DNA of 38,780 nt from Methylococcaceae bacterium (GTDB taxonomy: Bacteria > Pseudomonadota > Gammaproteobacteria > Methylococcales > Methylomonadaceae), in NCBI GenBank assembly GCA_005772825.1, contig SXIP01000277.1:1-38780 (forward strand). Direction: 5' to 3'. The notes under the pieces were generated by a model, which saw nothing but the letters and a program-made list of their open reading frames with translations, had not been told where the DNA came from and made no database searches. The translations under genes were made by a program, and so were the position numbers. The number at the start of each line of letters is the position of its first letter. Positions within the stretch are counted from its first letter, which is position 1. This document shows, in pieces, positions 3,061 through 38,599 of this stretch.

Positions 3061-3089
3061 CAGTTGTATATAACAATGAGAGACGAAGC

Positions 3090-3113
3090 GGGACTGGGTT
3101 TAAACCCAGTCCC
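3090..3113. repeat. Perfect 24-bp palindrome
   Basis: GGGACTGGGTTT is followed directly by its reverse complement AAACCCAGTCCC. It lies between the convergent ends of the DUF1640-like gene and gspD. It could act as a bidirectional transcription stop, but no T-run follows on either strand, so it may equally be part of the adjacent repeat element. Confidence 0.6.
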
Positions 3114-3222
3114 AAACGTTTTGATACGGCGGCAATCCTTGAACCCCTCAAGAAACCCTACGAACAGGAACTGTTCAGACTATTTTTGTCCAACAGATCC
3201 GATTTAATTTCCTGTTTTCCGA

Positions 3223-9929: not shown

Positions 9930-9933
9930 TCTC

Positions 9934-10389: not shown

Positions 10390-10428
10390 AGTGTACTTTT
10401 AATAAAGAGTTTCGGAGGGTGTAATTAA

Positions 10429-11640: not shown

Positions 11641-11662
11641 GAGTTGCTTATTAACTTTATCG

Positions 11663-11684
11663 TTCCCATGCTCCGGCGTGGGAA
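11663..11684. repeat. REP-like hairpin between gspE and gspF
   Basis: TTCCCATGCTCCGGCGTGGGAA folds into a short hairpin (TTCCCA with TGGGAA, then a T-G pair and GC/GC, loop TCCG). The surrounding sequence TTTATCGTTCCCATGCTCCGG recurs almost exactly at 38626-38646, so this is a dispersed repeat family. Confidence 0.65.
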
Positions 11685-11729
11685 TAATAGAATTCCTGCG
11701 GTTCTAAGATGAGTATTTATATTCATGGC

Positions 11730-13403: not shown

Positions 13404-13502
13404 AGGTTAAATTGTGGAGAAGAGAGTTTGATGAGGATTCATCAAAAATAAGTAAAAATTTGAAAAGCTCGGCAACAAAAACAAATCGCCCAAGTATAGA
13501 GG

Positions 13503-13567
13503 AAGCAGGAAATAAAGCTTCATTTGATTCCCCTCTCCCCAACCCTCTCCCGGAGGGAGAGGGAGCT
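13503..13567. repeat. Dispersed palindromic repeat, second copy inside the MoxR gene
   Basis: On the complement this reads CCCTCTCCCTCCGGGAGAGG, then GTTGGGGAGAGGGG, then AATCAAATGAAGCTTTATTT. The core CTCTCCCGGAGGGAGAGG forms a hairpin. Essentially the same sequence, including the AAATGAAGCTTTATTT tail, is found at 34052-34120 in the coding sequence of the AAA+ gene. Here it sits upstream of gspE, between that gene and the GH5 gene. Confidence 0.8.
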
Positions 13568-13655
13568 CAATATAGTTGTCATTATAAATTAATTACACAG
13601 TTCAATTACCGTCTCTTTGTTAAATAATTTTTTCAAAAAGAAATTAGCTTACCCG

Positions 13656-14834: not shown

Positions 14835-14881
14835 TATGTTTTACCTTTAATTAATACTTAAATTATGAAGAGGAAAAACAC

Positions 14882-16576
14882 TTACAACGCAATCCTTCTA
14901 TGATGGAATGCCTCAGCCGTGGGTTGATTCATAATCGTCAGCATCGCGGCTTCAGGTAGCTCCTGGCAGATCAAGCGCAGCATCTCCGATTCTCCTTCTG
15001 GCGTGAGCGAGTCAAAGGCCTCTTGCTGCAAGATCCATCTGGGGCGGTATAACAATAGTCGAACCAGTCCCAAGCGCTGTTGCTGTTCACGGGAAAGCAC
15101 TTTTTCCCAGGTGTCTGTCTGGTCAAGCTGCTCCAGTAAATCTTCAAGCCCGGCCAGTTTGAGCAACTCCTCAATCTTGTCCCGACTGAAGGTTTCAGGC
15201 GCAGACGGGTAGCAAATCGCTTCATACAGCGTGCCATCCGGTAAATAAGGTCTTGGCGGCATAAAGAACATCGGTTCCTGGTCAGGTAATTCGATACTGC
15301 CGCAGCCCCAGGGCCAAAGACCGGCAATCGCCTTGAAAAGCTTGGCGCCGGTCGCAGCATCGCCATGGATGAGAACGCGTTCGCCCTGTCTTATTTCATC
15401 GTTGATACCTGATACAATCACTTCACCATTGTGTTTGGCGATACACAAATCATGGAAGCACAAAACAGAATTGTCGGGTTTTTCTATAAGGATTCGCTGC
15501 GGGTCAGGACGGGCGATCTCCTGTTCCAGCTCTTCCAATGCTTCGACCAAGCCCAATACGCGCTCAACCGAGGCGCGCCATTGCGCGATTCCGGCCATAT
15601 TATTGACTGGCCAGGATAATGCGGAAGCCATGTGCTGAAAAGCCTGCACCGATTGCATCAAAGCGCCCAAGGTAATGCTTCCCAGAATATAGCGCGGCGC
15701 GGAAACCAGAATAGGAAACGCCATCGACAGTACACCATAGCCGGAGTTAAAGAGGAGAATATTCGCCCAGGCATGGGTTTGCTTATCGTACACGTCGGTA
15801 ATCGCTTGAAAAAGACTGAGAAAGCGCTTTTTCTCATTGCTTTCACCCTGAATCAGGGCTATTGCATGGGAGTTTTCCCGCGCCCTGACCAAGCCAAAGC
15901 GAAAATTAGCCTCTGCGGTTTGCATGGCGTTAGTGGTCATCGTTAACGGGCGGCCTATCCACCAACCCAACCAGGAAGCACCGGCGGCATAAAGAATGGC
16001 TATCCAGACCAGATGCCCGTATACAGGCATTTTGATAATTCCCAAATCAACAACAACGACGCCTGAAAGCGACCAGAGAATTTCAGTAAAACTGATCAGC
16101 AACAACACGCTGTAGAATAACGAATGCGCGAGAGCAATGGCTTCATCGGTGGCAATACGAATATCTTCGGCTATCCGACCATCCGGATTGTCATGTTCGG
16201 CAGTTTGTATGTGGGTCACCTGGTAATGGCGGCCTTTGCTCATCCATTGACTGATAACGCGCTCCGTCAACCAACTGCGCCAGGCGATTTGCAATCGCCG
16301 CTTGATGGTTAAGTGCGTGAAAGTAACGGCCATACTGGCTGCAAAAATCAGAATAAGCAAACCGATCTGCTTGAATAATCCTGACATGGAATGCTGTTCA
16401 AGCGCATTGAAAAGAGCGGCGCTCCATTCCGTGATAACCACGGCAATGACGATTTGAACCACAGTGAGGACAATTAAAGCCAGCGCCTGTTTCTGGATGA
16501 CCGACTTATTTTCAGAGGTCCAAAAGGGACCCGCTAACCGTATGAACTGAATAAAAAATTTGCTTTTACCGGGCAT
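14882..16576 (-). CDS. SbmA/BacA-type ABC transporter (YddA-like fusion) with a degenerate ATPase domain
   Basis: 564 residues. The membrane domain (about 25-340) has the SbmA/BacA-like pattern: RSWLTERVISQWMSKGRHY, then HDNPDGRIAEDIRIATDEA, then GSITLGALMQSVQAFQHM. The C-terminal nucleotide-binding domain (about 365-564) keeps the fold outline, but its motifs are altered. The Walker A region reads GDAATGAKL (405-413) without GKS/T. The Q-loop reads MPPRPYLP (Pro for Gln). The signature reads LSREQQQR. Walker B ends ILQQE (Gln for Asp). The switch His is Asn550. The single open frame is intact, so the protein is probably made but is unlikely to hydrolyse ATP normally. It may work like SbmA, which has no ATPase domain and is proton-driven. 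The substrate is unknown (peptides or long-chain acyl compounds are possible). Confidence 0.85.
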   Translation of the reverse strand: MPGKSKFFIQFIRLAGPFWTSENKSVIQKQALALIVLTVVQIVIAVVITEWSAALFNALEQHSMSGLFKQIGLLILIFAASMAVTFTHLTIKRRLQIAWRSWLTERVISQWMSKGRHYQVTHIQTAEHDNPDGRIAEDIRIATDEAIALAHSLFYSVLLLISFTEILWSLSGVVVVDLGIIKMPVYGHLVWIAILYAAGASWLGWWIGRPLTMTTNAMQTAEANFRFGLVRARENSHAIALIQGESNEKKRFLSLFQAITDVYDKQTHAWANILLFNSGYGVLSMAFPILVSAPRYILGSITLGALMQSVQAFQHMASALSWPVNNMAGIAQWRASVERVLGLVEALEELEQEIARPDPQRILIEKPDNSVLCFHDLCIAKHNGEVIVSGINDEIRQGERVLIHGDAATGAKLFKAIAGLWPWGCGSIELPDQEPMFFMPPRPYLPDGTLYEAICYPSAPETFSRDKIEELLKLAGLEDLLEQLDQTDTWEKVLSREQQQRLGLVRLLLYRPRWILQQEAFDSLTPEGESEMLRLICQELPEAAMLTIMNQPTAEAFHHRRIAL

Positions 16577-17892: not shown

Positions 17893-20800
17893 TTAGTCTA
17901 CGTGAATTGAGGTCGTGCTAAATACGCTGCCGGTGGAAAGGCTGACAATACTTGACACTCCGACCAAGTTAATTAGTGTATCGGTTGCTCCGCCATCCTG
18001 GAAAACCCACCAATCACTACCGGCTTGAAAAGCGACCGTAGAATTATTAGTAATATTGGTCTTCAAATATTCGATTACATCGCTTAAATTACTTGTCGCA
18101 GAAATAGACAAAGGGGTCAGGTAAGTATCCGCATCATCAAATTTAATAATCCCGTTGTCAATTTTGTGACTCTTAATGACCCCTTGATTGGTTCCATCAA
18201 CAGCTGCCGCAGTCGGAGCAATTTTGATGGTGCCGAACAAATCCAGAGAATCTGTAAATGCAGAGAACTTAGTGATTTTGTCGGCTTGAGCGGCACTGGC
18301 GGCCGTACTGTCACTCGCAGAGGTGTAGCGCACTATATCTTTGGCGGCCAAGGCTTCGGTCAAGTCTATGGTATCGGCGCCCAATCCGCCTATCAGTATA
18401 TCGGCGCCGTCTTTAGCAAAAAGCGTATCGTTACCGCCAAGTCCGCTCAGCACGTTGATTTTTGTGTTGCCGGTCAATACGTTAATGGCATCAGTACCGG
18501 TACCGTTAGCGTCGTTGGTACCGCCAGACAAGGACAGGTTTTCTATATTATTGTATTTTCTCAGATCCGTAGTCGTTTGGATTTCAATGGTGTCGGTGCC
18601 TTCGCCGGCCTTTTCTATAATGATATCGACAGCATTAGGGTCTACGTAAGTATCATTGCCGATACCGCCTATCAAGGTATCCGGACCGTCTCCGCTAATG
18701 ATCCTATCGTCACCGCCAAGTCCCGTTATGATATTGGCGGAATCATTGCCGGTAATGATATTATCATTGGCGTTACCTGTGCCGTTAATGGGGTTATTGA
18801 CACCGGTTGTGCCGCTGAGCGTCAGATTTTCAAAAAAGCCAAATCCAGTTTTTGCCAGACTAAAAGTAACCGTGCTGTTAATCGTATCTATCCAGCCCGC
18901 CTTGATTTTTCCTGTCGTTGCATCCTTCACATTGGCGACTTCAATCAAGGTATCAGTCGTTGTATCAACGAAATAAAAATCATCGCCTAAGCCGCCTTCC
19001 AGCTTATCGATACCGTTTTTACCGTCCAAGAAATTACTGCCCCCGTTACCGATGAGATAATTATTGGATCCCTGCCCGGTTACGTTCAGGTTGCTTGTGC
19101 CGGTAAGCCTGGCATTTTCGATGTCAAACCAGGTAGTCGACGTAGACAAATCCAGAGTGACGTTACCGGACTGTACCCAATCGTTACCTTGTCCGGCAAT
19201 TTCCCTGATGATTTCCAACTGGCTATCAACCACAAAAGTATCATCGCCATAGCCGCCTTCGTAGGTATCCACACCGGAGCCGCCATCCAGATAATCATCG
19301 CCGTAACCACCTTTAAGCGTATTAACACTGACATTAGTAGTCACGCTAATAATTCGATTGTTTAATTCATTACCGACACCCTCGGTTAAATTGCCTACCA
19401 TCGTCAAGTTTTCTACGCCGGCAAGGAGCGTATAGGATGGAGTGAGGATATCGCCTTTAAATTCGACGGTATCCACACCACCGTTAAAAGCATCTTCTCT
19501 CGTTTTGTCTTCGCCCGAGTCAATCCGGTAAAGATCATTGCCCGAACCGCCGTACAGTATGTCGGTTCCGGTAATTTTGAGCGGATCGACCACCGTAGCC
19601 TTATCATAGGTGACTCCTCCATACTTGCTTTCCGAGTAATACCAGCCGTCCAATATATCGTCACCGGCTCCACCATCCAGGGTATTGTTGAATTTATTCC
19701 CACTCAACAAATTGTTAGCGCTCGTGCCAGTAGCATTTACTGCTGCGCTATAATCGAGCAGGTCAACATTTTCAACGCCTTTGATAGTTTGATCGGTCAA
19801 TTTGACACTAGTTCTGGACACAACCAAGTCATAACCGGCGCCACCATCAATAGTGTCCGTACCCTGGCCTGCAAAAATAATATCATTGCCGTCACCGGCC
19901 TTAATCGTATCATTGCCTTCGGCACCGTCCAGTATGTCATACCGATTACTGCCTTGCAGGTAGTTATTGAGTTTGTTTCCGGTTAACGTCGCGATGGAAT
20001 ACAGACTGCCGTCATCCAGGCTTGGCGCATAAAGCTGGTCATCCAATACGCCGTTTTCAATGTTGTCAGCCAAGGTCACATGATAATTGATGGTTTTTGG
20101 ATCAGGATCAAGCTCCTTACCGTCGGCGCCTACATCATCATCGCGGCCGTCACTTTTGTAGTCACGTATGTAGTAAACAGTGTCAGTACCTTGATTGCTA
20201 TTCTCTTTAATAGTATCTTCCATGTTGTCAAAAGTTATGACATATCGATCATTGCCAAGACCGCCTGCTAGCGAGTCCTGACCATAACCGGAAAACAAGG
20301 TGTCATCACCTGAACCGGCCACTATCTTATCATTGCCAAATCCGCCCTCCAGCCAGGAGTCCAGTTGGGCATTACTGTTGGTAACGGTAATGGTATCGTT
20401 TCCGGTGCCTCCATAAACAATACCTTGATTTTTTACATAAAAGATGTCGCTGCCCCCATTGCCCCACATGGTGTCATAACCACCATAGAAGGTATCATTG
20501 CCGAAGCCGCCGACCATTGCATCATGTTCATTGATGTTCGTACCATAATTAGTGAAATCACTGGTATCGGACATCTTATCGTCGCCGTCACCGCCTTCCA
20601 GAAAATCAGTACCAGAACTACCATACAGGATATCGTTACTAATGCCGCCAAAAACATAATCGTCACCGCTACCACCGTAAAGCGTATCAAGGCCAGTGCC
20701 ACCATAGACAAAATCATTTCCGGCATCGCCAAAAAGCTTATCATTACCAAGACCTCCGTCCAAAACATCAATACCGTCATTACCATTAATAGTATCGGTC

Positions 20801-21186
20801 CCAGCTCCACCAGCCAGCTTGTCATCGCCGACACCGCCCAGCACTTTGTCGTCACCCGTACCACCATCCAGGATATCGTTAGCGCTGCCGCCATCAAGGG
20901 TGTCATTCCCCAATCCACCCGTTAACAGATCCTCACCCGCACCGCCAAATAATTGATCATCATCATCGCCGCCATCAAGCGAGTCGATGCCGTCGCCGCC
21001 TTGAAGAATATCTTTGCCCGCACCACCGAGTAACAAGTCATTGCCGGTATTACCTAATAGTGTGTCATTGCCTGTGCCGCCGTTTATTATATCGTTGCCG
21101 GCCAGTCCATCAATGTTATCGTTGCCGCTATTGTTACCGGCACTAGGCCAAGTATCGTCGTCGTTTGTAAGTTTTATTAGGGCCAT
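17893..21186 (-). CDS. Large RTX (hemolysin-type) calcium-binding repeat protein, probable type I secretion substrate
   Basis: 1097 residues built almost entirely of RTX nonapeptides of the GGxGxDxLx type, e.g. LAGNDIINGGTGNDTLLG. They are densest at residues about 25-330 and recur to about 965, separated by beta-rich spacers (around SLDDGSLYSIATLTGNKLN). There is no N-terminal signal peptide. The C terminus (about 970-1097) has a SDWWVFQDGGATDTLINLVGV stretch like the secretion-signal domains that end many RTX proteins. No enzymatic domain is recognised, so it may be an adhesin, a surface-layer or a matrix protein. Calcium would fold it outside the cell. No type I transporter genes are in the window. 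A good ribosome site (AAGGAA) precedes the ATG. Confidence 0.92.
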   Translation of the reverse strand: MALIKLTNDDDTWPSAGNNSGNDNIDGLAGNDIINGGTGNDTLLGNTGNDLLLGGAGKDILQGGDGIDSLDGGDDDDQLFGGAGEDLLTGGLGNDTLDGGSANDILDGGTGDDKVLGGVGDDKLAGGAGTDTINGNDGIDVLDGGLGNDKLFGDAGNDFVYGGTGLDTLYGGSGDDYVFGGISNDILYGSSGTDFLEGGDGDDKMSDTSDFTNYGTNINEHDAMVGGFGNDTFYGGYDTMWGNGGSDIFYVKNQGIVYGGTGNDTITVTNSNAQLDSWLEGGFGNDKIVAGSGDDTLFSGYGQDSLAGGLGNDRYVITFDNMEDTIKENSNQGTDTVYYIRDYKSDGRDDDVGADGKELDPDPKTINYHVTLADNIENGVLDDQLYAPSLDDGSLYSIATLTGNKLNNYLQGSNRYDILDGAEGNDTIKAGDGNDIIFAGQGTDTIDGGAGYDLVVSRTSVKLTDQTIKGVENVDLLDYSAAVNATGTSANNLLSGNKFNNTLDGGAGDDILDGWYYSESKYGGVTYDKATVVDPLKITGTDILYGGSGNDLYRIDSGEDKTREDAFNGGVDTVEFKGDILTPSYTLLAGVENLTMVGNLTEGVGNELNNRIISVTTNVSVNTLKGGYGDDYLDGGSGVDTYEGGYGDDTFVVDSQLEIIREIAGQGNDWVQSGNVTLDLSTSTTWFDIENARLTGTSNLNVTGQGSNNYLIGNGGSNFLDGKNGIDKLEGGLGDDFYFVDTTTDTLIEVANVKDATTGKIKAGWIDTINSTVTFSLAKTGFGFFENLTLSGTTGVNNPINGTGNANDNIITGNDSANIITGLGGDDRIISGDGPDTLIGGIGNDTYVDPNAVDIIIEKAGEGTDTIEIQTTTDLRKYNNIENLSLSGGTNDANGTGTDAINVLTGNTKINVLSGLGGNDTLFAKDGADILIGGLGADTIDLTEALAAKDIVRYTSASDSTAASAAQADKITKFSAFTDSLDLFGTIKIAPTAAAVDGTNQGVIKSHKIDNGIIKFDDADTYLTPLSISATSNLSDVIEYLKTNITNNSTVAFQAGSDWWVFQDGGATDTLINLVGVSSIVSLSTGSVFSTTSIHVD

Positions 21187-23046: not shown

Positions 23047-23165
23047 GAGTAAATAGCCACTGTCTTTGCCGGCATTTTAACTAACCCGAATAAGGAAAAA
23101 TTCTAACGTTATCTTTGCAGGGCAAGCGTACGCATTGCTTTCTTCAACGCCAACGGGAAAGAAAA

Positions 23166-24512
23166 ATGAAAACCTGTTTATTATTAGCCTTACTTGGTTT
23201 GGCTGTTTTTTCTGTTCCTTCGGAAAGCAAAGCTGCGCCCGACAGTAAAGGTGAACTCTATACCCTGCTGGATCAGAAAAATGCGGATCGTCTATTGATG
23301 GTGGGCTTTTCCGATAACAGCATTAACAGTCTCAAAGGCACTGCTTCTCCGCTCTCTTACAGAAACCGGGGCGGCTACCGAAGCTCTACATGGAGTGAGA
23401 GAGTCACAAACCAGCTTGCTGACGATTACGGTTTGGAGAAATTGGCTGAATGGCCGATGACTGAGGTGGGCGTCCATTGTGTGGTTTACCGGATTCCAGA
23501 CAAAAGCGCGTTATCGACGGTTATGGAGAGCTTGTCCAAGGATGATCGCGTTGAAATCGTGCAGAACATGAATGTCTTTAAAACCAAAGCTGATAATTAC
23601 AACGATCCTTACTTTAAACTTCAGACCAATTTACAACAAATGCAAATCGATCTGGCGCATGGAAGAGCCACCGGACGCGATATCACGATCGCCATGATCG
23701 ATACCGGCGTAGATCTGGACCACCCCGATCTGGCAGGACAGATCAGCAACAAGCAGAATTTCGCAAATGATATATCCGACAGTTTTTCCACTGACAAACA
23801 CGGTACCGCAGTGGCCGGTGTCATGGTTGCAAAAAGAGATAACGCAACGGGTATTATCGGCGTGGCACCTAATGCCAAACTGGTCGCTTTGAAAGCCTGC
23901 TGGCCGGATAAAACCGATGCGATCGAGGCGATTTGTAACAGTTTCACCCTCGCACTGGCCGTCAATACGGCAATCAAGGCGAAAGTGGATGTGTTGAATA
24001 TGAGCCTGACCGGCCCGACCGACCCTATATTGACCTTGTTGATTAACAAGGCGATGGCAAACGGCATTATCGTGGTGGCCGCCGACACAGGCTCCGGCAA
24101 TCCCTCCGAAAACTTTCCGGCGTCATTAAAAGACGTTATTTCCGTCCAGTCGATTAAACAAGCCGCTCCGTCAGCGAATGCCTTGGTACGATCGATCAGC
24201 GCCCCGGGCGATAAAGTGTTGACTACCCTGCCGCACGGCACCTATGATTTTATTTCGGGCAGCTCAATAGCAGCAGCGGAAGTGTCCGGTGTTGTCGCCT
24301 TGTTGCTGGAACTGAAACCGGATTTAACGGTGGCGGCTGTCCATACGATTTTGCAAAAATCCAAAATCATGGCAAAAGACGGTCTCATAGCCGGCGTTAA
24401 TGCCAATGTCGCCGTCAACACCTTATGCGAAACTATCGCTTGCGCGCCTCAGAACTTGAGTTTTGCACAGTTCAACCCTGCCGGCGAAGCCCAGCCTGAG
24501 CCGATACGCTAG
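23166..24512 (+). CDS. Secreted subtilase (S8 family serine protease) with an altered oxyanion region
   Basis: 448 residues from the ATG at 23166. An upstream in-frame start at 23115 would put 17 basic residues before the signal peptide, so I reject it. The signal peptide is MKTCLLLALLGLAVFSVPSE, with cleavage after SKA. An N-terminal prodomain-like region (about 25-145) is followed by the catalytic core: Asp179 in MIDTGVDLDHPDL, His212 in DKHGTAVAGV, Ser367 in SGSSIAAAEVSG. The segment that normally reads AAGN, carrying the oxyanion Asn, here reads VVAADTGSGNPSEN. The C terminus has a Cys pair (LCETIAC). It is exported by Sec and may go further by the type II system. It converges on the next gene with only 13 bases between them. 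Confidence 0.92.
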   Translation: MKTCLLLALLGLAVFSVPSESKAAPDSKGELYTLLDQKNADRLLMVGFSDNSINSLKGTASPLSYRNRGGYRSSTWSERVTNQLADDYGLEKLAEWPMTEVGVHCVVYRIPDKSALSTVMESLSKDDRVEIVQNMNVFKTKADNYNDPYFKLQTNLQQMQIDLAHGRATGRDITIAMIDTGVDLDHPDLAGQISNKQNFANDISDSFSTDKHGTAVAGVMVAKRDNATGIIGVAPNAKLVALKACWPDKTDAIEAICNSFTLALAVNTAIKAKVDVLNMSLTGPTDPILTLLINKAMANGIIVVAADTGSGNPSENFPASLKDVISVQSIKQAAPSANALVRSISAPGDKVLTTLPHGTYDFISGSSIAAAEVSGVVALLLELKPDLTVAAVHTILQKSKIMAKDGLIAGVNANVAVNTLCETIACAPQNLSFAQFNPAGEAQPEPIR

Positions 24513-28967: not shown

Positions 28968-31328
28968 ATGAAAAAAATTAAGCCAAACCTCGTTCTATTA
29001 TTGTGCATGGTTCTGCTTGCAGGATTAATCACAGGCGTTGTTTACTTCACACGCCCTGCTCCGGTAGCGCTGATTTCAAAGGCTCCCACCGCAGCGAAAC
29101 AGAAGCCCGTATTGGCTCAAGCGAAAACCGATTATATCGGTTCGGATACCTGCAAGCATTGTCATCAGACCGAATTTAAAGCTTGGCAAGACTCGCATCA
29201 TGCCCTGGCGATGCAGGAAGCCAATGCCCAAACTGTGCTCGGCGACTTCGAAAATACAACATTCAAATACTTCGATGTCGAATCGACTTTCTTCAAGCGC
29301 GACGGAAAATTTATGGTCCGCACCGACGGTCCTGACGGTAAACAGACCGATTACACTATCGCCTATACCTTCGGCGTGACGCCGCTGCAACAATATCTGA
29401 TCGCCTTTCCCGGCGGTCGTTATCAGGCGCTCGGCATTGCCTGGGACAGCAGGCCTAAATCCGAAGGCGGGCAACGCTGGTTTCATCTTTATCCCAACGA
29501 AAAAATCGATCATTCCGACCCGTTACATTGGACCGGGCGTTACCAGAACTGGAACATGCACTGCGCCGAATGTCACTCGACCAACCTGAAGAAGGGTTAC
29601 GACGCCGCATCAGACAGTTATCACACGACCTTTAACGAGATCAATGTAGCCTGTGAGTCTTGCCACGGCCCCGCTTCCCGACATATCGACTGGGCTAAAC
29701 AGGCGCAACCGCCCTATTCCGACCATGACAAGGGTTTGGCCGTAAAGCTCAAAAGCCAATGGCAAAACGCATGGACGTTCCCAGATGCGACGGCAAAGTT
29801 CGCACATCGTGAGCAGCGCGCCGATGAGTCACTGATGAATGTTTGCTGGTCTTGTCATGCGCGCCGCTCGACGCTACTGGCAAACAGTTTGCCGGGCCGG
29901 ACTCTTGAGGATACTCATAATCCTGCTTTACTAACCCAGCCCGTCTATTATGCAGACGGGCAACAACGCGACGAAGATTTCACCTGGGGTTCCTTTCGCC
30001 AAAGCAAAATGTTCCAAAAAGGCGTGACCTGCATGGATTGTCACGAGCCGCATGGCCTTAAACTTCGCGCCGAAGGCAATGCGCTATGCACGCGTTGCCA
30101 CAATGCCGCAACATTTGACACTGAGGATCATCATTTCCACAAGCCGGGTTCAAACGGCGCTCAGTGCATCAACTGTCATGCACCTGAACAAAATTACATG
30201 GTGATTGACGGGCGGCATGATCACAGTTTTCGTTTGCCGCGCCCGGATTTATCTATCTCGCTGGGCAGCCCCAATGCCTGCACACAGTGCCATCAACGGC
30301 GCAAAGCGGAATGGGCGGCTGCAACGCTGGATAAATGGCTTGGCAAAGCTTGGCGCAACCGTGCGCATTATGGAACCATCTTACATGCCGGCGTAACCCA
30401 AGGTATCAAAGCCTTACCGGCACTGATCGATCTGGCAGGCGATTCAGCGAGTCCAGCCATTGTGCGAGCCACCGCGTTAGCGCTGATTTCACCGCTGATG
30501 CAGCAGGAGTCCCTTCCCAAGCTGCAATCGCGGCTACAGGATGCCGATCCATCGGTGCGTATCGCCGCCCTGGACCTCTTTGAATCCATTGACCCGGTCA
30601 ATCGCGCTCTTTATGCCTCACCCCTGCTCGCCGATCCAATACGCGGCGTCCGCATCGCAGCAGCGCGCCTGCTTGCCGATATACCGGATAGCGAAATTCC
30701 TGCCAATCATCGCAATGCCCGCAGCAGCGCGATGAAGGATCTGCTGGAGTCGATGAATATCAATGCCGATTGGCCGGTAGAGAGCGTTAATAAGGGGAAT
30801 CTCGCCCTGCGCCAGGGCGACATCGAAGCCGCAATCGCCGCCTACAAACACGCGCTTGTACTCGATCCGCACTTCGTCGAAGCTTACATCAATCTCGCCG
30901 ACGCCTACCGTCAACAAAACCGTGATGATGACGGCGAAATAGAACTACGCAAAGGCTTGTCATTGCTACCCGATGCTGCGGATCTGCACCATGCGCTGGG
31001 ATTACTGCTGGTTCGGAAAACCGACCCTACAGCGGCTCTGCAAGCCCTTGCCAAAGCCGCCAAACTGGCCCCGGATAATGCCCACTATGCCTATGTCTAC
31101 GGCATCGCATTGAATTCACTCGGAAAACAACGTGAGGCCCTGACATTGTTGAAAGCTGCCGACACCCGCCATCCGTATAATCTCGATATACTCAGCGCAC
31201 TGATTTCAATGCAGCGCGAAGCGGGTAACAGCAAAGCGGCGCTGGCCTACGCGCGCAAAGTTGCCGAGGTGATGCCGGACAATATGGACATAAAGCACTT
31301 GATAGCGGAATTGGAAAGCGGGAGATAA
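28968..31328 (+). CDS. Octaheme c-type cytochrome fused to HEAT-like and TPR repeats
   Basis: 786 residues. An N-terminal signal/anchor helix (about 7-28) is followed by eight CxxCH heme motifs: CKHCH (62), CAECH, CESCH, CWSCH, CMDCH, CTRCH, CINCH and CTQCH. They lie in a domain like the cytochrome c554 / hydroxylamine-oxidoreductase superfamily. Residues about 455-590 are HEAT-like helical repeats and about 605-780 are TPRs (KHALVLDPHFVEAYINLADA). The protein should sit in the periplasm, tethered to the inner membrane, with covalent hemes. TPRs would dock partners. Family members are predicted multiheme electron-transfer or redox proteins; no specific reaction can be given. It has no clear ribosome site. 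A 28-codon frame (28884-28970 region) ends overlapping its start and could couple translation. Confidence 0.92.
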   Translation: MKKIKPNLVLLLCMVLLAGLITGVVYFTRPAPVALISKAPTAAKQKPVLAQAKTDYIGSDTCKHCHQTEFKAWQDSHHALAMQEANAQTVLGDFENTTFKYFDVESTFFKRDGKFMVRTDGPDGKQTDYTIAYTFGVTPLQQYLIAFPGGRYQALGIAWDSRPKSEGGQRWFHLYPNEKIDHSDPLHWTGRYQNWNMHCAECHSTNLKKGYDAASDSYHTTFNEINVACESCHGPASRHIDWAKQAQPPYSDHDKGLAVKLKSQWQNAWTFPDATAKFAHREQRADESLMNVCWSCHARRSTLLANSLPGRTLEDTHNPALLTQPVYYADGQQRDEDFTWGSFRQSKMFQKGVTCMDCHEPHGLKLRAEGNALCTRCHNAATFDTEDHHFHKPGSNGAQCINCHAPEQNYMVIDGRHDHSFRLPRPDLSISLGSPNACTQCHQRRKAEWAAATLDKWLGKAWRNRAHYGTILHAGVTQGIKALPALIDLAGDSASPAIVRATALALISPLMQQESLPKLQSRLQDADPSVRIAALDLFESIDPVNRALYASPLLADPIRGVRIAAARLLADIPDSEIPANHRNARSSAMKDLLESMNINADWPVESVNKGNLALRQGDIEAAIAAYKHALVLDPHFVEAYINLADAYRQQNRDDDGEIELRKGLSLLPDAADLHHALGLLLVRKTDPTAALQALAKAAKLAPDNAHYAYVYGIALNSLGKQREALTLLKAADTRHPYNLDILSALISMQREAGNSKAALAYARKVAEVMPDNMDIKHLIAELESGR

Positions 31329-31519: not shown

Positions 31520-31984
31520 ATGGCAATTCAGAACGAATCTACATCCCAGGACATTCTCAATCATTCAGACCCTGCGCTAATTAAAACGATGGAAATGTAT
31601 CAAGCCATCATTACCCGAATGGCCGCCAACAGCGCTGCTTGCAAGCAATGGTGCATCCCTTTGGTGACCGCGATATTAGTTTTTGCGGTGAAAGAAAAAT
31701 CCTATTATCTGATATGGCTGACCCTGATCCCTGTCTTGATATGCTATTGCCTGGATGCGTATTACCTGATGCTGGAAAATCGTTTTCGCGAGGGTTTCAA
31801 TCAAGCTGCCGCCAAGGTTGTCGAACAGACGTTTACCCGAGCAGACTTGTTCAAATTATCGCCGGCAGGCTGTAAATGCCAACTATGGCGTAAAGCATTC
31901 ACTTCGCTGGCGACATGGCCGGTTTATCTGGGTTTACTGGCTTTGTTGATCGTTGCCTTGAAACTATCGACAAGTATGAGTTGA
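31520..31984 (+). CDS. Three-helix membrane protein, first gene of the TIR/AAA+ operon
   Basis: 154 residues. A soluble helical N terminus contains MEMYQAIITRMAANSAACKQ (about 26-45). Two close membrane helices follow (about 47-65, IPLVTAILVFAVKEK, and 68-90, IWLTLIPVLICYCLDAYYLM), then a linker and a third near the C terminus (about 130-150, WPVYLGLLALLIVALKL). The layout recalls SLATT-type and similar small membrane proteins that accompany nucleotide-activated bacterial immune systems, but I recognise no exact family. Its stop codon is one base from the TIR gene's ATG, so the two are translationally coupled. A role as membrane anchor or effector pore is inference. Confidence 0.75.
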   Translation: MAIQNESTSQDILNHSDPALIKTMEMYQAIITRMAANSAACKQWCIPLVTAILVFAVKEKSYYLIWLTLIPVLICYCLDAYYLMLENRFREGFNQAAAKVVEQTFTRADLFKLSPAGCKCQLWRKAFTSLATWPVYLGLLALLIVALKLSTSMS

Positions 31985-31985
31985 T

Positions 31986-33407
31986 ATGGAAACGTCGGTC
32001 CAACTTGGGCAGAATTTCCCTGTACACGCCTATTTGTCTTACCGCTGCAAAAACCCGCAGGATATTGCAGCCAGGGACAAATTACAAAACCTCTGTAAAC
32101 AACAAAACATTAGCCTGCGTTTTGATGAAAACCAAACCGAACAAGGCGACAGTCTGATCGAGTTTATGGAAGATTTGACGGCTGCCCGCTGTGTTTTTCT
32201 GTTTCTTAGCCCTGACTACTTTCAGTCTTCTGCTTATACGTTGTTTGAATTGATCTGTATTCATGAAAATGCCGATCTGAATCAACGATTCATTTTGCCG
32301 TTGCGATTGACAGAATCGATGGTCACCTATGTATGGACTGACGCAAAACTTTATTTTGAAGGCAATAACAAAGTTCAAAATGAACTGATCCGTTTATTGA
32401 AAAAATATAATTTCAATACTGACAATCTTTGGCAACGCATTGATGCGGCCTGGAATGCCATTATTTTTCCGCATCTCGATATACTCAATGGCGCATTGGA
32501 AAACCAACATAATGCCTTAGAGGCGTTGCTAGGCAAAACGAAAACAGCAATATCACAAGCGATAACGCAATCGACTAAAACCTTGCGCGATACACTTGTA
32601 TCCAAGATTAGCGCCATTTTAAACCGAAAACATATCAATGCCGACGATCAGTTGAGAGCCGAATTATCATTAAGAGCTAACGATAACACGGATAAAATTG
32701 CCAGTCATTTGGTTGAGAAAACAGAAGTGGGAGAGGCCATAGCCATATTGACACGCGTTTTAGAAGAGAAGAAAGTTCTCCTGGACGCGAATGAATGGAA
32801 GGCCTGCTTTTTTGATGCCGAGCAGCTTTGCGGTTGGTTAATATTAAACAGTGTCGATCCTACATGGTGGTTTCATAACGAAAAAAAATTAGACAAAACC
32901 ACCAAGACCAGTATTAGTGGGAGTATCGCCCTGCATGATAAAAACTACATAGAAGTTGTGATTTCACGATGTTTCGAAAAAGCGGCTCGTTATATCTTAG
33001 ATAGCAATAAACAGCCTAAACCTGCGGGTAACAAAAACGATGTCATGTGTTTTGATGCGTCAACTCCAAAGGCAAAAATTGACGAATTATTGACCAGTAT
33101 CTATAAAGATCTATTTGGTGTTGAACCTTCTAAGGACATAGATATTTTGAAAAAAGTCATTGCTAGAGCAAAGACGAATTATAAAAATCAGCAAAAACCG
33201 GTTTATTATCTGGTGACGGCTGATTATCTCGCCATGTGGGAATCAGTAGCTAAAGATTTTAGCGATGAGGATGTAAAAGAGCTTGCGGGCTGCATGCAAT
33301 TCATTTGTTGCGACAAGCCCGCGAAACCTAATGAACGCCAAGCGAGTATTGAAGATCAAACCCAATTGTTAGATCAAATCGCTTATTTTCTATCTTTGCA
33401 ACATTAG
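31986..33407 (+). CDS. TIR-domain protein, probable effector or signal enzyme
   Basis: 473 residues. The N-terminal TIR domain (about 10-135) has the strand pattern VHAYLSYR, then LRFDENQTEQGDSLIEFMED, then CVFLFLSPDYFQSSAYTLFEL. The putative catalytic Glu is Glu88 in the YTLFEL motif. TIR enzymes of this class typically cleave NAD+ or make a cyclic ADP-ribose signal. The remaining 340 residues are helical without a recognised domain (about 140-260 coiled coil or helical). The AT-rich sequence and its codon use differ from the downstream MoxR gene, hinting at a different origin. It precedes the AAA+ gene by 10 bases. An NAD-depleting, cell-suicidal effector is the likely role; this is inferred from family and context. 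Confidence 0.88.
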   Translation: METSVQLGQNFPVHAYLSYRCKNPQDIAARDKLQNLCKQQNISLRFDENQTEQGDSLIEFMEDLTAARCVFLFLSPDYFQSSAYTLFELICIHENADLNQRFILPLRLTESMVTYVWTDAKLYFEGNNKVQNELIRLLKKYNFNTDNLWQRIDAAWNAIIFPHLDILNGALENQHNALEALLGKTKTAISQAITQSTKTLRDTLVSKISAILNRKHINADDQLRAELSLRANDNTDKIASHLVEKTEVGEAIAILTRVLEEKKVLLDANEWKACFFDAEQLCGWLILNSVDPTWWFHNEKKLDKTTKTSISGSIALHDKNYIEVVISRCFEKAARYILDSNKQPKPAGNKNDVMCFDASTPKAKIDELLTSIYKDLFGVEPSKDIDILKKVIARAKTNYKNQQKPVYYLVTADYLAMWESVAKDFSDEDVKELAGCMQFICCDKPAKPNERQASIEDQTQLLDQIAYFLSLQH

Positions 33408-33417
33408 AAATTACACT

Positions 33418-34542
33418 ATGTTTAAAACACCCACACTGGAAAACTTCCTCCCCCCAGACGACTTAAAAGTCAGTAACCCCAACCGCAAACTCCACCACAT
33501 CTTTAACGAAGCCGATTGTTACGCACTCTGGGCAGCCTACGCCGCCGGTCGGCCGTTGTTAGTGCGCGGCAAGCCCGGAACCGGCAAAAGTCAGATGGCA
33601 AAAGCCATCGCTGAGCAGTTGGGTTGGGCATTTGTCAGCGAAGTGGTGCGGGGCAGTACCGAGCTCAGTGATCTGCATTGGCATTTTGATGCGATTGGTC
33701 GCTTGGGGGAAGCACAGGCGCGGGCTGGGCAAGCTAAAGAACCAGAAAAGCCCGACCCACTGAATCCGCTCAATTTTTTAGCCCCCGGCGCATTCTGGTG
33801 GGCTTTTGACTGGCAGACCGCGCAAGATCAATACGACAAATGCCCCTGCCATGCGCGGCCTAAGCCGGAACAGCCTGAGCAATGGCGGCCTGAAACCGGC
33901 GGCGTCGTGTTGCTGCTGGATGAAATCGACAAAGCCGAACCGGATTTGCCGAATGGACTTTTAGAAACCTTGGGGCTTTATGAATTTACCGTGCCTTATC
34001 TTGATCATGCCAAGCAAGCAATACAAACTGCGGAATTAAAAAAGCGACATACTGCCCCCTCTCCAGCGGGAGAAGGTTGGAGTGAGGGGAAAACAAATGA
34101 AGCTTTATTTTCCGCTGCCGCCATACCCAGCATAAACCCGATCAAAGCCGATCCGTCGCAGCTGTTAGTGATTATCACCACCAACGAAGAGCGCGAACTG
34201 CCCAAGGCTTTTGTGCGCCGTTGTTTTGTGCATACCTTGAAAATGGAAGAATCCGCAGAATCAATAAACCCGGATGCCGAAAAGCCGTTACAAAAACGCC
34301 ACGACTGGCTGATGCAACGGGGGCGACTGCATTTTGGCGAACAAATCGCCGAACTGGTTTATCTACTGGCCGCCGAATTATTATGGAACGATCGTGTTGC
34401 CGCCCCTCATACGCAATACCCGCCGGGATTGGCGGAATACATTGATTTGCTGAACGCCATTAAAAGCCTGGATCATCAGCAACAACTTGAACGCTTGGAA
34501 GCCATTGCCAAGTATGCGCTGAAAAAAGACCTGGAGTCTTAA
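33418..34542 (+). CDS. MoxR-type AAA+ ATPase with a repeat-derived in-frame insertion
   Basis: 374 residues. Walker A GKPGTGKS (51-58), Walker B VVLLLDEIDKA (163-173), sensor 1 IITTNE with Asn256 and the Arg-finger region FVRRC (265-269) are intact. The gene should be an active AAA+ ATPase of the MoxR clade, which works with von Willebrand A (vWA) domain partners. Residues about 211-236 are coded by a palindromic intergenic repeat that also occurs at 13503-13567, without breaking the frame. The insertion falls between Walker B and sensor 1. It follows the TIR gene and its stop codon is 3 bases before the ATG of the vWA/FGE gene, so they form one operon. Confidence 0.92.
   Translation: MFKTPTLENFLPPDDLKVSNPNRKLHHIFNEADCYALWAAYAAGRPLLVRGKPGTGKSQMAKAIAEQLGWAFVSEVVRGSTELSDLHWHFDAIGRLGEAQARAGQAKEPEKPDPLNPLNFLAPGAFWWAFDWQTAQDQYDKCPCHARPKPEQPEQWRPETGGVVLLLDEIDKAEPDLPNGLLETLGLYEFTVPYLDHAKQAIQTAELKKRHTAPSPAGEGWSEGKTNEALFSAAAIPSINPIKADPSQLLVIITTNEERELPKAFVRRCFVHTLKMEESAESINPDAEKPLQKRHDWLMQRGRLHFGEQIAELVYLLAAELLWNDRVAAPHTQYPPGLAEYIDLLNAIKSLDHQQQLERLEAIAKYALKKDLES
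34052..34120. repeat. Palindromic repeat in the MoxR coding sequence
   Basis: The sequence CCCTCTCCAGCGGGAGAAGG followed by GTGAGGGG and an AAATGAAGCTTTATTT tail is a variant of the repeat at 13503-13567 (complement). It adds about 23-26 in-frame codons to the AAA+ gene. Confidence 0.8.
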
Positions 34543-34545
34543 CAC

Positions 34546-37383
34546 ATGGCCTGGGGACGGCTCGCCTTAATTCAGGCCGCAGATGACGCACAGGCCCTGG
34601 ATAAACTCGCCGAGGTTTTCGGGTACGCCAGAAAGCCCGAGCATTCGGCAGAATTTCAGTTAGTGGTCGGCGGTTTCACCGCAGAGATTAGTAGCTCCGA
34701 TGAAACGGAGGATACCGCCCCCAAACGCCCGCCCGCCCGTTTTTTGCGCATCAATAAAATGATCCAAAACGAGACCGACCGTAGCGACTTCCAAAAACCC
34801 AGCTACCTGTCCGATCCCTCCAGACGCTTGCAAGCCTCTACCGGCACTTACCGCTTTGCGCCACCGCCGCCCTTGCTGCCGATAGCCCGATTGCTGCCGT
34901 TATTATTCAACAGTCTGGCGCAAGCCAGAACCGGCCATAGCCTGGATCATCGACCATTATTAAAACGGCTAGCGCAAGGCAGAGCGCTGCAACGCTTACC
35001 GAAACGGCAACATCAACGCTGGCCGCAACGTCTGCAAATCATTGTCGATGCCGACCGGCGTCTGGAACCTTACTGGACTGATTTTGAGTTTATTGTCCGG
35101 CAATTGCAGGCGCTGCTGGGCAAAGAGGCGGTGGAAGCCTTTCGGTTTGACAAGGACACCCTGGGCGATGCCGTCTGTTATTGTCTGCCCTGGCCCGCAG
35201 ATGACCACGAGCAATGGCGAATTTGGCAAGCACCGCCGCCGGATGTGGCTATTTTGATACTCAGCGACTTAGGTGTAGGTGACAGCCGCGCCGCAGTAGC
35301 CTGGCGACGTCAATTAGCCGCTTTACAACAACATCCCGGCCCGATCTTAACCCTCAGCCCCGCCTCCGGCACATCGGAAGACAAAGCGTTTTGCCAACAA
35401 TTTAAACCCAACCCGGTCAACGATGATTACCCGCTGCCGCGCCATCCCGTGCGCAGCGGATTTTCCCTCGGTGAATCTTCAGCATCCGCCATCGAAGACA
35501 TCCTCACCTGGCTGTCGCCGTTGTCTCTTATTGATACCGGTTTATTGCGCCGATTGCGGATAGCCCTGCAATGGGGGGACAGCGCCGTGGAAACTGTCAT
35601 TTGGAACCATCCGGCGGTGCGTGACATCGGCTTGGGGATATGCTTGCAGCAACACCTCGCCAAAGTTTATCAGCAAGGTTTCCAGCAGCGTTTTGCCGGA
35701 ACTGAAGCGGCGGCGAGATTTTGGGACATTGTCGAAGACCATCACAAGGCCGCTTACCAGGGCTTGCGGCAATTGGAAAAACTTAAACAGTGCCTATTCG
35801 AACACAAAGACGAAGCGACGATGTGCGAGTATTTTGAAAATCTTTGCGCCACCGGAATGAACAGCGGCAGTGATCCGGCACAACAGCATGCCTTGCGGCT
35901 GCAATGCCGGACTGTGCTGGCTTCATTGCCCGATGCTATCTGGAACAGCGAGTTAAAAGCGTTGGCTTACCCACTTTACGCTACTGCTTACGAAGATGAA
36001 ATCCGCGCCGGACAATGGCCTGAACGGATAGCCAGCGGATTTAATCCCGATCATCTGCGCTGGGTCACAGGCGATGCGCCTACTGCGCAAGCCCACCAAT
36101 GGTGGCAAATTGTGCAACTGGATGATCAGGGCCAAATTAAAGTGGAGCCGTGTCGTTTGGACAATGTCGTGGCGGTGAATACCTTTAAGATTGAAGCCAA
36201 ATACTCCCTCCCCAGATTGACCCTATCGGATGCCGGACAAGAGACCCGGCTGTTACAGGGCGACATGACAGTGACTTTAGCGGAAAACACGACTGCGGTG
36301 TTCGCATCCGGCGGCTTAACAGTGGAACTGGAAGCCGTTTACCGTCCCAGTTGGGCTAGCCGAATCTGGCGCAATGCTGAAGGCTTATGGGGCACTATCC
36401 CTTGGTTAAACCAAGCGCTGGAAGCTTTTTGGCAAGCCTCTACTACTGAGGCGAATGGAGCTTGGCGTTGGCCTTCGCCCTTCGGCGAAGACGCCTTCGG
36501 CCTGTATGTCGATCTCAGCATCAAGTCTGTCACGCAACGCTTCCGCTGGATCGAGCCCGGTTCATTCTGGATGGGCAGCCCCAACGATGAGCCGGAGCGA
36601 GAATGGTATGGATCAGAAGCCGGTCAAGGCACGGAAACCCTGCATCACGTGACGCTGACGCAAGGCTTTTGGTTGGCGGATACGACGGTCAGCCAAGCTT
36701 TCTGGCTGGCCGTGATGGGCGACAACCCCAGTCAGTTTAACGACAATCTTCAGAATCCTGTGGAAAAAGTCAGTTGGCATGACGCTCAACGCTTTATCGA
36801 CAGGCTAAACTCTTTGTTGCCCTGCTTGAAGGCACAACTGCCCACTGAGGCCCAATGGGAATATGCCTGCCGGGCGGGCGCCAGCACGCCATTTTCGTTT
36901 GGCGCCAACATAACGCCGGAACAAGTCAATTACAATGGGAATTGTCCATACGCCGACGGCCGTGAAGGTTTGTACAGGGAGCAAACTGTCCCCGTCAGAT
37001 CGTTGCCGGCTAATCCGTGGGGGTTATACGAAATGCACGGTAATATTTGGGAATGGTGCGCCGATGACTGGCAACAGCAGCTATCAGCCGAGTCGGTGAT
37101 TGATCCGCTTTATACCAGCTCTTATCCTGGCGCCTACCGCGTTGTACGCGGTGGCTCCTGGTACAACTACGGCAGGAGCGTCCGTTCCGCTGACCGCTAC
37201 AGGGGCACGCCGGATGACCGCGACGACAACCTGGGTTTCCGTCTCGCCCTAGGTCATGTTGAGCAGGCGGTAGCCACCAGCGGAGACCCGGGCAGACGCG
37301 TCGCGGAGCATCGGCAGACCGGGCCTTCGCCGGTGGCGGACAGTAGACCTGTGTCAAATCCGGTGTCACGCCTCAAAAAATGA
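34546..37383 (+). CDS. vWA-like plus FGE/C-type-lectin-fold protein with a DGR variable region (variable protein 1)
   Basis: 945 residues. An N-terminal helical part and a vWA-like domain (about 160-310) show IIVDADRR in place of a MIDAS DxSxS motif, and VAILILSDLG (Asp241). A helical middle (about 320-550) and a beta-rich linker (about 555-640) follow. The FGE-sulfatase domain (about 655-904) shows FRWIEPGSFWMGSP, then KVSWHDAQRFIDRL, LPTEAQWEYACRAG, GLYEMHGNIWEWC and RVVRGGSW. Residues 865-904 form the variable region (VR). The two Cys that active FGE carries here are absent, so it should bind ligands and not make formylglycine. The final 41 residues (after GFRLALGH) read through the downstream hairpin because of a 4-base difference from the second protein. 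It would be the recognition subunit of the system. Confidence 0.85.
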   Translation: MAWGRLALIQAADDAQALDKLAEVFGYARKPEHSAEFQLVVGGFTAEISSSDETEDTAPKRPPARFLRINKMIQNETDRSDFQKPSYLSDPSRRLQASTGTYRFAPPPPLLPIARLLPLLFNSLAQARTGHSLDHRPLLKRLAQGRALQRLPKRQHQRWPQRLQIIVDADRRLEPYWTDFEFIVRQLQALLGKEAVEAFRFDKDTLGDAVCYCLPWPADDHEQWRIWQAPPPDVAILILSDLGVGDSRAAVAWRRQLAALQQHPGPILTLSPASGTSEDKAFCQQFKPNPVNDDYPLPRHPVRSGFSLGESSASAIEDILTWLSPLSLIDTGLLRRLRIALQWGDSAVETVIWNHPAVRDIGLGICLQQHLAKVYQQGFQQRFAGTEAAARFWDIVEDHHKAAYQGLRQLEKLKQCLFEHKDEATMCEYFENLCATGMNSGSDPAQQHALRLQCRTVLASLPDAIWNSELKALAYPLYATAYEDEIRAGQWPERIASGFNPDHLRWVTGDAPTAQAHQWWQIVQLDDQGQIKVEPCRLDNVVAVNTFKIEAKYSLPRLTLSDAGQETRLLQGDMTVTLAENTTAVFASGGLTVELEAVYRPSWASRIWRNAEGLWGTIPWLNQALEAFWQASTTEANGAWRWPSPFGEDAFGLYVDLSIKSVTQRFRWIEPGSFWMGSPNDEPEREWYGSEAGQGTETLHHVTLTQGFWLADTTVSQAFWLAVMGDNPSQFNDNLQNPVEKVSWHDAQRFIDRLNSLLPCLKAQLPTEAQWEYACRAGASTPFSFGANITPEQVNYNGNCPYADGREGLYREQTVPVRSLPANPWGLYEMHGNIWEWCADDWQQQLSAESVIDPLYTSSYPGAYRVVRGGSWYNYGRSVRSADRYRGTPDDRDDNLGFRLALGHVEQAVATSGDPGRRVAEHRQTGPSPVADSRPVSNPVSRLKK
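37138..37257 (+). other. DGR-type variable region VR1
   Basis: 120 bases, from the Arg codon of RVVRGGSW to the His of LALGH. Against VR2 the invariant codons are identical (GGTGGCTCCTGG, GTCCGTTCCGCT, CCGGAT, CGTCTCGCCCTAGGTCAT). The differing codons (e.g. TAC, AGC, GAC, GGC) can all come from AAC by replacing adenines. That is the pattern of mutagenic retrohoming from an adenine-rich template. Confidence 0.85.
37273..37337 (+). repeat. Hairpin/cruciform element downstream of VR1
   Basis: The 5' arm 37273-37291 pairs with 37319-37337 (19 positions, 16 Watson-Crick plus a G-T pair). The 27-base loop contains CAGACGCGTCGCGGAG, which is shared with the loop of the VR2 hairpin. Such structures enhance target recognition in known DGRs. 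This one lies inside the coding sequence of variable protein 1. Confidence 0.75.
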
Positions 37384-37409
37384 TTCAGCAAAAGAGGTAA
37401 AAATAACCA

Positions 37410-37694
37410 ATGAAATATAAGTTTTTTCAAATTCCAGCCGGTGATTCGATTGCTGCCGAAAATGAACTGAATGCGTTTGTGGCCCAACACCGTATCACCC
37501 ATATTGACCGGCATTTTGTCGCCGACGCCGCTAACAGCTTTATCCTCATTCCCAAGCTCAAGCTTGGGAATGCAGTCCTGGAAGCTCCAGCTTCCAGAAT
37601 TCTCGAAGCTGGAGCTTCTCGAATCTGGGTTCCCATTTATGCCCCAGAGGGTAAGCCGGAGCTTGGGAACCCAGGCAAAAATCTAGCCCGATGA
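37410..37694 (+). pseudogene. DGR accessory gene (HRDC-type) broken by a palindromic repeat
   Basis: The first 44 residues or so (MKYKFFQIPAGDSIAAENEL, then AFVAQHRITHIDRHFVADAANSF) match, from memory, the N terminus of the HRDC-domain accessory proteins coded beside many DGR reverse transcriptases, which normally continue with a Trp after NSF. Here the frame runs instead into a composite palindromic repeat (from 37541) and ends at 94 residues as low-complexity sequence. The HRDC domain is missing, so the gene is presumably inactive. It sits between the two variable-protein genes. Family assignment rests on this N terminus alone. Confidence 0.6.
37547..37674. repeat. Composite palindromic repeat
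   Basis: At least three nested inverted repeats: a 12-bp stem (37547-37558 with 37561-37572, CATTCCCAAGCT), the pair CTCCAGCTTC/GAAGCTGGAG (37585-37594 with 37605-37614), and an 11-bp stem CTGGGTTCCCA (37625-37635 with 37664-37674). It has taken the place of the rest of the accessory gene. Confidence 0.85.
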
Positions 37695-38515
37695 GCTCTT
37701 TGCTAAAACTTTCCCCGCCGCGATTTCCTTATCCCTGGGCTTCTGATTGGGGTGAAGACCGCTACGGCCTATGGCAAGCCTTTACTTATCTGGGCATACG
37801 TCTCGCCTTTCGCTGGATACCGCCGGGCCGTTTTATGATGGGCTCGCCGGAAAATGAACCGGGTCGCTATGACGATGAAGACCTGTATCCCGTCACGCTT
37901 AGCCAGGGCTTTTGGTTGGCTGAAACGACGGTCACTCAAGCATTATGGAAAGCAGTATTGGGAGCCAATCCCAGTCGTTTTAAAGGAGAACGCCGACCCG
38001 TGGAGTCCGTCAGTTGGCAGGATGTTCAGGCTTTTATCAAACAACTGAATCAATGTGTGCCGCAATTAATCACCCGCTTGCCGTGGGAAGCGGAATGGGA
38101 ATATGCTTGTCGCGCAGGCAGCCAAACGCCGTTTAATTTTTCCGGTGAACTTACTCTGGATAAGGTTAATTACAGAGGGACACGGGAATATATATCTGGA
38201 GAATGGGGTGAGGACGCTAAGCAGGAAACCGTCGACGTTAAATCCTACCCCTGTAATGATTGGGGCTTATTTGAAATGCACGGAAACGTTTGGGAATGGT
38301 GTGAGGATGCCTGGATTGAGCATTTGGGCAAAGCAGCCATCAATGATCCCTGGCAACTTTCAGCAACAAGTGCTGACGCCGCCCGCGTTGTGCGCGGTGG
38401 CTCCTGGAGCAACCGCGTCGGCAGGGACGTCCGTTCCGCTTACCGCGACAGGATCGCGCCGGATTACCGCATTCACGATCTGGGTTTTCGTCTCGCCCTA
38501 GGTCATTCCGGTTGA
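37691..38515 (+). CDS. FGE/C-type-lectin-fold protein with a DGR variable region (variable protein 2)
   Basis: 274 residues: a short N terminus and a single FGE-sulfatase-fold domain, with FRWIPPGRFMMGSPENEP (about 41-58), VESVSWQDVQAFIKQLN (about 104-120), LPWEAEWEYACRAG and WGLFEMHGNVWEWC. VR2 (residues 232-272) ends two residues before the stop (LALGHSG), which is the usual place for a DGR target. No FGE catalytic Cys pair is present in the VR. It resembles the C-terminal domain of variable protein 1 but lacks the vWA part, so it could be a free decoy, a soluble ligand sensor or an alternative recognition subunit. It is preceded by the broken accessory gene and shares its strand. Confidence 0.85.
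   Translation: MSSLLKLSPPRFPYPWASDWGEDRYGLWQAFTYLGIRLAFRWIPPGRFMMGSPENEPGRYDDEDLYPVTLSQGFWLAETTVTQALWKAVLGANPSRFKGERRPVESVSWQDVQAFIKQLNQCVPQLITRLPWEAEWEYACRAGSQTPFNFSGELTLDKVNYRGTREYISGEWGEDAKQETVDVKSYPCNDWGLFEMHGNVWEWCEDAWIEHLGKAAINDPWQLSATSADAARVVRGGSWSNRVGRDVRSAYRDRIAPDYRIHDLGFRLALGHSG
38384..38506 (+). other. DGR-type variable region VR2
   Basis: 123 bases, one codon longer than VR1. Codons such as AGC, CGC, GTC, GAC, ATC, CAC and TAC stand where the shared frame predicts AAC. Non-adenine differences from VR1 are few (three C/T changes: TTC/TTT, and the third bases of two variable codons). Confidence 0.85.
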
Positions 38516-38541: not shown

Positions 38542-38599
38542 GCCGCAGTCAACAGTAACAGACGCGTCGCGGAGAGCAGCAGGCTGTGTTGACTGCGGC
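38542..38599 (+). repeat. Hairpin/cruciform element downstream of VR2
   Basis: A perfect 13-bp stem (GCCGCAGTCAACA, 38542-38554, with TGTTGACTGCGGC, 38587-38599) and a 32-base loop carrying the CAGACGCGTCGCGGAG shared with the VR1 element. The flanks GGTAGCC before and GCGGACA after are shared too, although the stem sequences differ. Confidence 0.85.

What the first reader, a model, noticed from the sequence alone, without database searches (positions are those of the whole stretch)
37138..38506. Two adenine-mutagenised variable regions: a diversity-generating retroelement target pair
VR1 (37138-37257) and VR2 (38384-38506) share almost all codons at fixed positions. At the positions where they differ, nearly every codon is derivable from AAC by changing only its adenines (TAC, GAC, AGC, GGC, ATC, CAC, CGC, GTC). 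The exceptions are three C/T differences, one of them in a fixed codon. The rest of the two genes is far more diverged, for instance at synonymous sites of the HGNIWEWC segment. This indicates recent homogenisation of the VRs from one adenine-rich template by mutagenic retrohoming. It is the clearest sign of a DGR in the window.
Basis: partly seen in the sequence, partly recalled or inferred. Interest (0 to 1): 0.92.

Follow-up and report, generated by a model that had tools for sequence, protein, structure and literature searches.

The report
Retroelement-diversified gene pair, retroelement lost
Two neighbouring bacterial genes end in a patch that a mutation-making retroelement once rewrote at chosen positions, but at this spot the retroelement's enzyme and template are gone and dispersed repeat DNA sits in their place; this kind of system is already known, so the finding is real but mostly ordinary.

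Summary
VR1 (37138-37257) and VR2 (38384-38506) are variable repeats of a diversity-generating retroelement (DGR). Relatives in the same family (Methylococcaceae, e.g. Methylomonas koyamae) have intact loci ordered MoxR-type ATPase, long FGE/C-type-lectin target, HRDC accessory gene, DGR reverse transcriptase (RT), adenine-rich template repeat (TR), short FGE target. There, 281/525 TR adenines but only 10/1470 other positions differ between TR and VR. The window has the same order (TIR, MoxR, long target, short target), but between the targets only the first 44 accessory codons remain, followed by a dispersed REP repeat. RT and TR are gone from this position and were found nowhere in the 77%-complete assembly. 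A second locus in the same genome (C208) lost the same interval, now holding REPs and a REP-associated transposase. VR1/VR2 carry more non-adenine differences (3/81 plus a codon indel) than VR pairs of intact loci (2/566), so homing has probably stopped here. The architecture matches the clade 5A DGR conflict systems of Dore et al. 2024, who also describe loci whose RT was replaced by repeats. New member of a known kind. A less-described detail is a long covarying hairpin with a conserved tip after each VR.

The parts
31986..33407 (+). TIR-domain gene (473 aa), likely effector of the conflict system
   Evidence: Pfam TIR_2, E 4.4e-8
33418..34542 (+). MoxR-like AAA ATPase gene (374 aa), directly upstream of the long target
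   Evidence: Pfam AAA E 9.9e-9 and AAA_5 E 2.5e-7; same place in intact relatives
34546..37383 (+). Long DGR target gene (945 aa): N-terminal extension without a Pfam match, C-terminal FGE-sulfatase (C-type-lectin fold) domain carrying VR1
   Evidence: Pfam FGE-sulfatase E 1.7e-41, residues 668-901
37138..37257 (+). VR1, ending in the IMH-type sequence CTAGGTCAT
37273..37337 (+). Hairpin downstream of VR1, with tip CAGACGCGTCGCGGAG
   Evidence: Fold and covariation; motif search
37410..37541 (+). Remnant (first 44 codons) of the HRDC-type DGR accessory gene
   Evidence: tblastn to the accessory gene upstream of RT in nearly all DGR loci fetched; HRDC in intact relatives
37549..37672 (+). REP-like palindromic repeat, in the place of the rest of the accessory gene, RT and TR
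   Evidence: Core repeat has at least 28 copies in the genome
37691..38515 (+). Short DGR target gene (274 aa), FGE-sulfatase domain only, carrying VR2
   Evidence: Pfam FGE-sulfatase E 5.7e-43
38384..38506 (+). VR2, one codon longer than VR1
38542..38599 (+). Hairpin downstream of VR2, same tip and different stem

Best explanation
The two genes are the long and short targets of a DGR that diversified the ligand face of FGE/C-type-lectin domains in a TIR/MoxR conflict (putative invader-sensing) system. A DGR RT copied an adenine-rich TR with random bases opposite A, and the cDNA replaced the VR in each target; the IMH and the downstream hairpin marked the target. Later the 3' part of the accessory gene, the RT and the TR were lost from this locus, and a dispersed REP repeat now stands in their place. 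What remains is an orphan VR pair that has begun to collect ordinary mutations. Shown: the VR pattern, the intact homologous loci, the accessory remnant, the repeat, and the absence of RT and TR from the assembly. Inferred: that REP/RAYT activity caused the loss, that homing has stopped, and the sensing role.
For: Adenine-column bias of VR1/VR2; intact loci in the same family with RT and TR between the two targets and 281/525 against 10/1470 TR-VR mismatches; accessory remnant between the targets; repeat in place of the cassette; no RT fragment in the window, no RT or TR in the assembly; the same loss with a REP-associated transposase at C208; excess of non-A differences over intact loci, 3/81 against 2/566, p = 0.016.
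Against: The assembly is 77% complete and fragmented, so RT and TR may exist unassembled. The repeat could have caused a misassembly that skipped a cassette between two repeat copies. The non-A excess rests on three sites, clustered in VR2. The cognate TR was not seen, so which columns were A is taken from relatives.
Confidence: 0.8

Rival explanations
1. The VR pair is still diversified in trans, by an RT and TR elsewhere in the genome or on an unbinned replicon.
For: In G226, VRs on two other contigs match the TR of contig C39 at 72/73 and 73/73 non-A positions. Trans activity is reported for Thiohalocapsa DGR 4 and 5 (PMC10907252). The genome is incomplete.
Against: No TR or DGR RT in the assembly; more non-A differences between the VRs than in any intact pair; near-complete relatives G069 and G072 also hold VR pairs without a matching TR.
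Confidence: 0.13
2. The cassette is present in cis but was dropped from the contig by a misassembly at the repeat, or lies beyond the contig end.
For: The repeat occurs at least 28 times, and the contig ends about 270 bases after VR2.
Against: The accessory gene is already broken at codon 44; in relatives the cassette never follows the short target in the loci examined; the second locus C208 shows the same loss with the replacing DNA assembled through.
Confidence: 0.05
3. Not a DGR: two paralogous FGE genes whose C-termini were made alike by gene conversion and then diversified by selection on ligand-contact residues.
For: Tandem FGE paralogues exist, and no RT is in the assembly.
Against: It does not predict changes limited to columns that hold adenine in independent TRs, the IMH-type end, the accessory-gene remnant, or RT and TR at the same place in relatives.
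Confidence: 0.02

Closest known systems
Clade 5A DGRs with MoxR conflict systems (Dore et al. 2024, PMC10907252; Thiohalocapsa PB-PSB1 DGR 8 and relatives)
   Same: MoxR directly upstream of a long target with an N-terminal extension and C-terminal CLec domain, a second short CLec-only target, TIR gene nearby; degenerate loci in which repeat arrays replaced RT or TR are described there too
   Different: The host here is in the methanotroph family; the replacing DNA is of REP/RAYT type; the RT is missing here, so its clade could not be tested
Methylomonas koyamae R-45383 DGR locus (L051 = L103, contig NZ_LUUK01000204.1)
   Same: Same gene order MoxR, long target, short target; same VR type, CTAGGTCAT end, and hairpin with a related tip
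   Different: Keeps the HRDC accessory gene, RT and TR between the targets, and its two VRs show no non-A difference
Bordetella phage BPP-1 DGR (Guo et al. 2011, PMC3240598)
   Same: Adenine-specific TR-to-VR change, VR at the 3' end of a C-type-lectin gene, a hairpin needed downstream of the VR
   Different: Phage host-binding protein, 8-bp stem with 4-nt loop, Avd accessory instead of HRDC; the hairpins here have stems up to 22 bp and a conserved tip of about 27 nt

Membership tests
Diversity-generating retroelement | VR that differs from its TR, or from sister VRs, almost only at TR adenines | tested here: met
   VR1 against VR2 on relatives' TR columns, 14/25 against 5/83; own TR not available
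Diversity-generating retroelement | Template repeat in the genome | tested here: inconclusive
   Not in the 77%-complete assembly; present at homologous loci of relatives
Diversity-generating retroelement | DGR-type reverse transcriptase | tested here: inconclusive
   None in the assembly at E 1e-8, no fragment in the window; present in relatives
Diversity-generating retroelement | Accessory gene (Avd or HRDC) | tested here: met
   Only as a 44-codon 5' remnant; full HRDC protein in relatives
Diversity-generating retroelement | IMH in VR against IMH* in TR, and hairpin downstream of the VR | tested here: met
   VRs end CTAGGTCAT and relatives' TRs CTAGCTCA; hairpin after both VRs
Diversity-generating retroelement | Ongoing diversification | not testable with these tools
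   Needs reads; non-A differences suggest none now
Clade 5A DGR / MoxR conflict system | MoxR directly upstream of a long target, plus a short CLec-only target | tested here: met
   compared
Clade 5A DGR / MoxR conflict system | RT falls in clade 5A | not tested
   The window has no RT; the relatives' RTs were not placed in the published tree
MoxR-vWA-VMAP ternary system | vWA and VMAP components | tested here: not met
   No vWA or VMAP Pfam match in the seven neighbouring proteins scanned; clade 5A loci also lack the vWA in the target

The most novel reading that the evidence does not exclude
In methanotroph-family DGRs the target genes outlive their cassettes: RT and TR are repeatedly lost from between the two targets, in association with REP/RAYT elements, while VRs and elaborate covarying target hairpins persist and could be used again by a cassette that arrives later or acts in trans. 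The long hairpin with a conserved tip would then be a target-recognition module unlike the 4-nt-loop type of phage DGRs.
Probability: 0.25. Interest if true: 0.55.

Novelty: new member of a known kind. Interest (0 to 1): 0.38.

Why it matters
It adds a Methylococcaceae-family bacterium to the hosts of DGR-diversified conflict systems and gives a clean case, with a second one in the same genome, of targets left behind after the retroelement was lost. The count of non-adenine differences offers a simple way to tell silent VR pairs from active ones. The covarying hairpin with a conserved tip is a testable target-recognition element.

Tried and rejected
TR pattern in the own genome with up to 3 mismatches: nothing. 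TR-like and VR1 DNA queries in the own genome: only the two VRs, a VR-like site on C208, and short chance hits. The RVT_1 hits on C228 and C275 were considered as the missing RT; neither shows the DGR motifs in the part read, and neither scored against the DGR RT profile at E 1e-8. tblastn of five DGR RTs against the window gave only chance hits. Rfam gave no credible family near the VRs. Gene conversion plus selection was rejected because of the adenine-column bias.

Full report
What was claimed, and whether it is there. Both are present in frame near the C-termini of two FGE-domain genes. On the columns of three template repeats from relatives, VR1 and VR2 differ at 14 of 25 adenine columns and 5 of 83 others. 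On a slightly longer stretch that includes three bases beyond the VR, Fisher's test gives p = 3.7e-6. The rest of the FGE domain is far more diverged: 57.5% against 83.3% nucleotide identity, and synonymous differences in 53/96 against 2/28 identical-residue codons, p = 2.7e-6. VR2 has one extra codon in its AAC-type run.

What relatives show. The window is a whole contig (C273) of a 3.7 Mb, 77%-complete assembly. A TR-like query matches 29 of 237 genomes of the same family, this one included. Intact loci have the order MoxR-type AAA, long FGE target, HRDC accessory gene, RT, TR, short FGE target. The RTs carry IGSLTSQ and RYMDD. TRs are rich in AAC and typically end in CTAGCTCA where VRs end in CTAGGTCA. 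Over 19 TR-VR pairs on the same contigs, 281 of 525 TR adenines but only 10 of 1470 other positions differ. This settles the DGR nature of the VRs.

What is missing in the window. The window keeps TIR, MoxR, long target and short target. Between the targets, ORF 37410-37694 starts with 44 codons homologous to the accessory protein found upstream of RT in nearly all DGR loci fetched, and then runs into a palindromic repeat whose core occurs at least 28 times in the genome, 8 of them without mismatch. RT and TR, which occupy this place in relatives, are absent here and from the assembly. A second locus of the same genome, C208, has Metallophos, MoxR, long target, about the first 30 accessory codons, REP, a REP-associated tyrosine transposase (NF047646, 101 bits against a cut-off of 80), more REP, and the short target. 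Both loci have thus lost the same interval. That REP/RAYT elements caused the loss, rather than landing in a locus already broken, is inference.

Is it still active? In seven intact loci, pairs of VRs differ at 2 of 566 non-A positions in all. The window pair differs at 3 of 81 (p = 0.016) plus a codon indel; the C208 pair at 9 of 80 to 12 of 83 (p below 1e-6). The simplest reading is that homing has stopped at both loci, longer ago at C208, though the two loci do not differ significantly from each other (p = 0.08). Trans activity from an RT and TR outside the assembly remains possible: in G226, VRs on two other contigs match the C39 TR at 72/73 and 73/73 non-A positions, and trans activity is reported in Thiohalocapsa (PMC10907252). 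Near-complete relatives G069 and G072 also carry VR pairs for which no matching TR was found.

The hairpin. Both VRs are followed by an inverted repeat with the same tip, CAGACGCGTCGCGGAG. In relatives the outer stem reaches 22 bp and changes freely in sequence. On nine core sequences, 208 of 243 pair cells are complementary against 63-108 when slid by one to three bases, and 19 of 27 pairs show changes on both sides against 9-13 when slid. The rows were anchored on the tip, the structure was taken from one of them, and some rows are closely related, so these counts are descriptive. The tip motif was found after VRs and after none of the TRs examined; in named loci from other groups it follows 15 of 156 VR-like matches, some of these loose, and 0 of 29 TRs. 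Guo et al. 2011 showed that a hairpin after the VR is needed for efficient BPP-1 homing, with 7-10 bp stems and 4-nt loops in phage DGRs (PMC3240598). The element here is larger; its function was not tested.

Comparison with the known. Dore et al. 2024 describe clade 5A loci with MoxR directly upstream of a long target, a short CLec-only target and TIR effectors nearby, and degenerate loci whose RT was replaced by MITE-like arrays. The window fits this in every respect that could be tested. RT clade membership could not be tested because the RT is missing. The sensing role of the targets is the authors' proposal and is untested there and here.

Noticed in passing
L199 (G000:C208), about 7791-15620, - strand: A second DGR-type locus of the same genome (Metallophos, MoxR, long and short FGE targets) whose accessory/RT/TR interval is now REP, a RAYT transposase and more REP.
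   Followed up: yes
window 37273-37337 and 38542-38599; relatives: Hairpins after the VRs with a conserved tip of about 27 nt and covarying stems up to 22 bp, much larger than the 4-nt-loop hairpins described for phage DGRs.
   Followed up: partly
window 38408-38419; L056 5289; L192 807: Whole-codon length differences inside VRs: VR2 of the window is one codon longer than VR1, the L056 VR is two codons shorter than its TR, and the L192 VR is two codons longer than usual. Slippage on AAC repeats during cDNA synthesis is a possible cause.
   Followed up: no
L044, L045, L047, L048, L049, L050, L054: Tandem FGE VR pairs without a matching TR found in the same genome, also in assemblies called 99-100% complete.
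   Followed up: partly
L046, about 767-3146 (G006:C344): A TR remains near a VR while the stretch between them seems to hold only an RT C-terminal remnant and unrelated DNA; no DGR RT scored in this genome.
   Followed up: no
window 31520-31984: A 154-aa protein just upstream of the TIR gene matches the PADLOC candidate defence family PDC-M50A (E 5.7e-28).
   Followed up: no
window 17893-21186, 23115-24512, 28968-31328: RTX-repeat protein, S8 peptidase, and a cytochrome-like protein with TPR repeats; not obviously part of the DGR locus.
   Followed up: no
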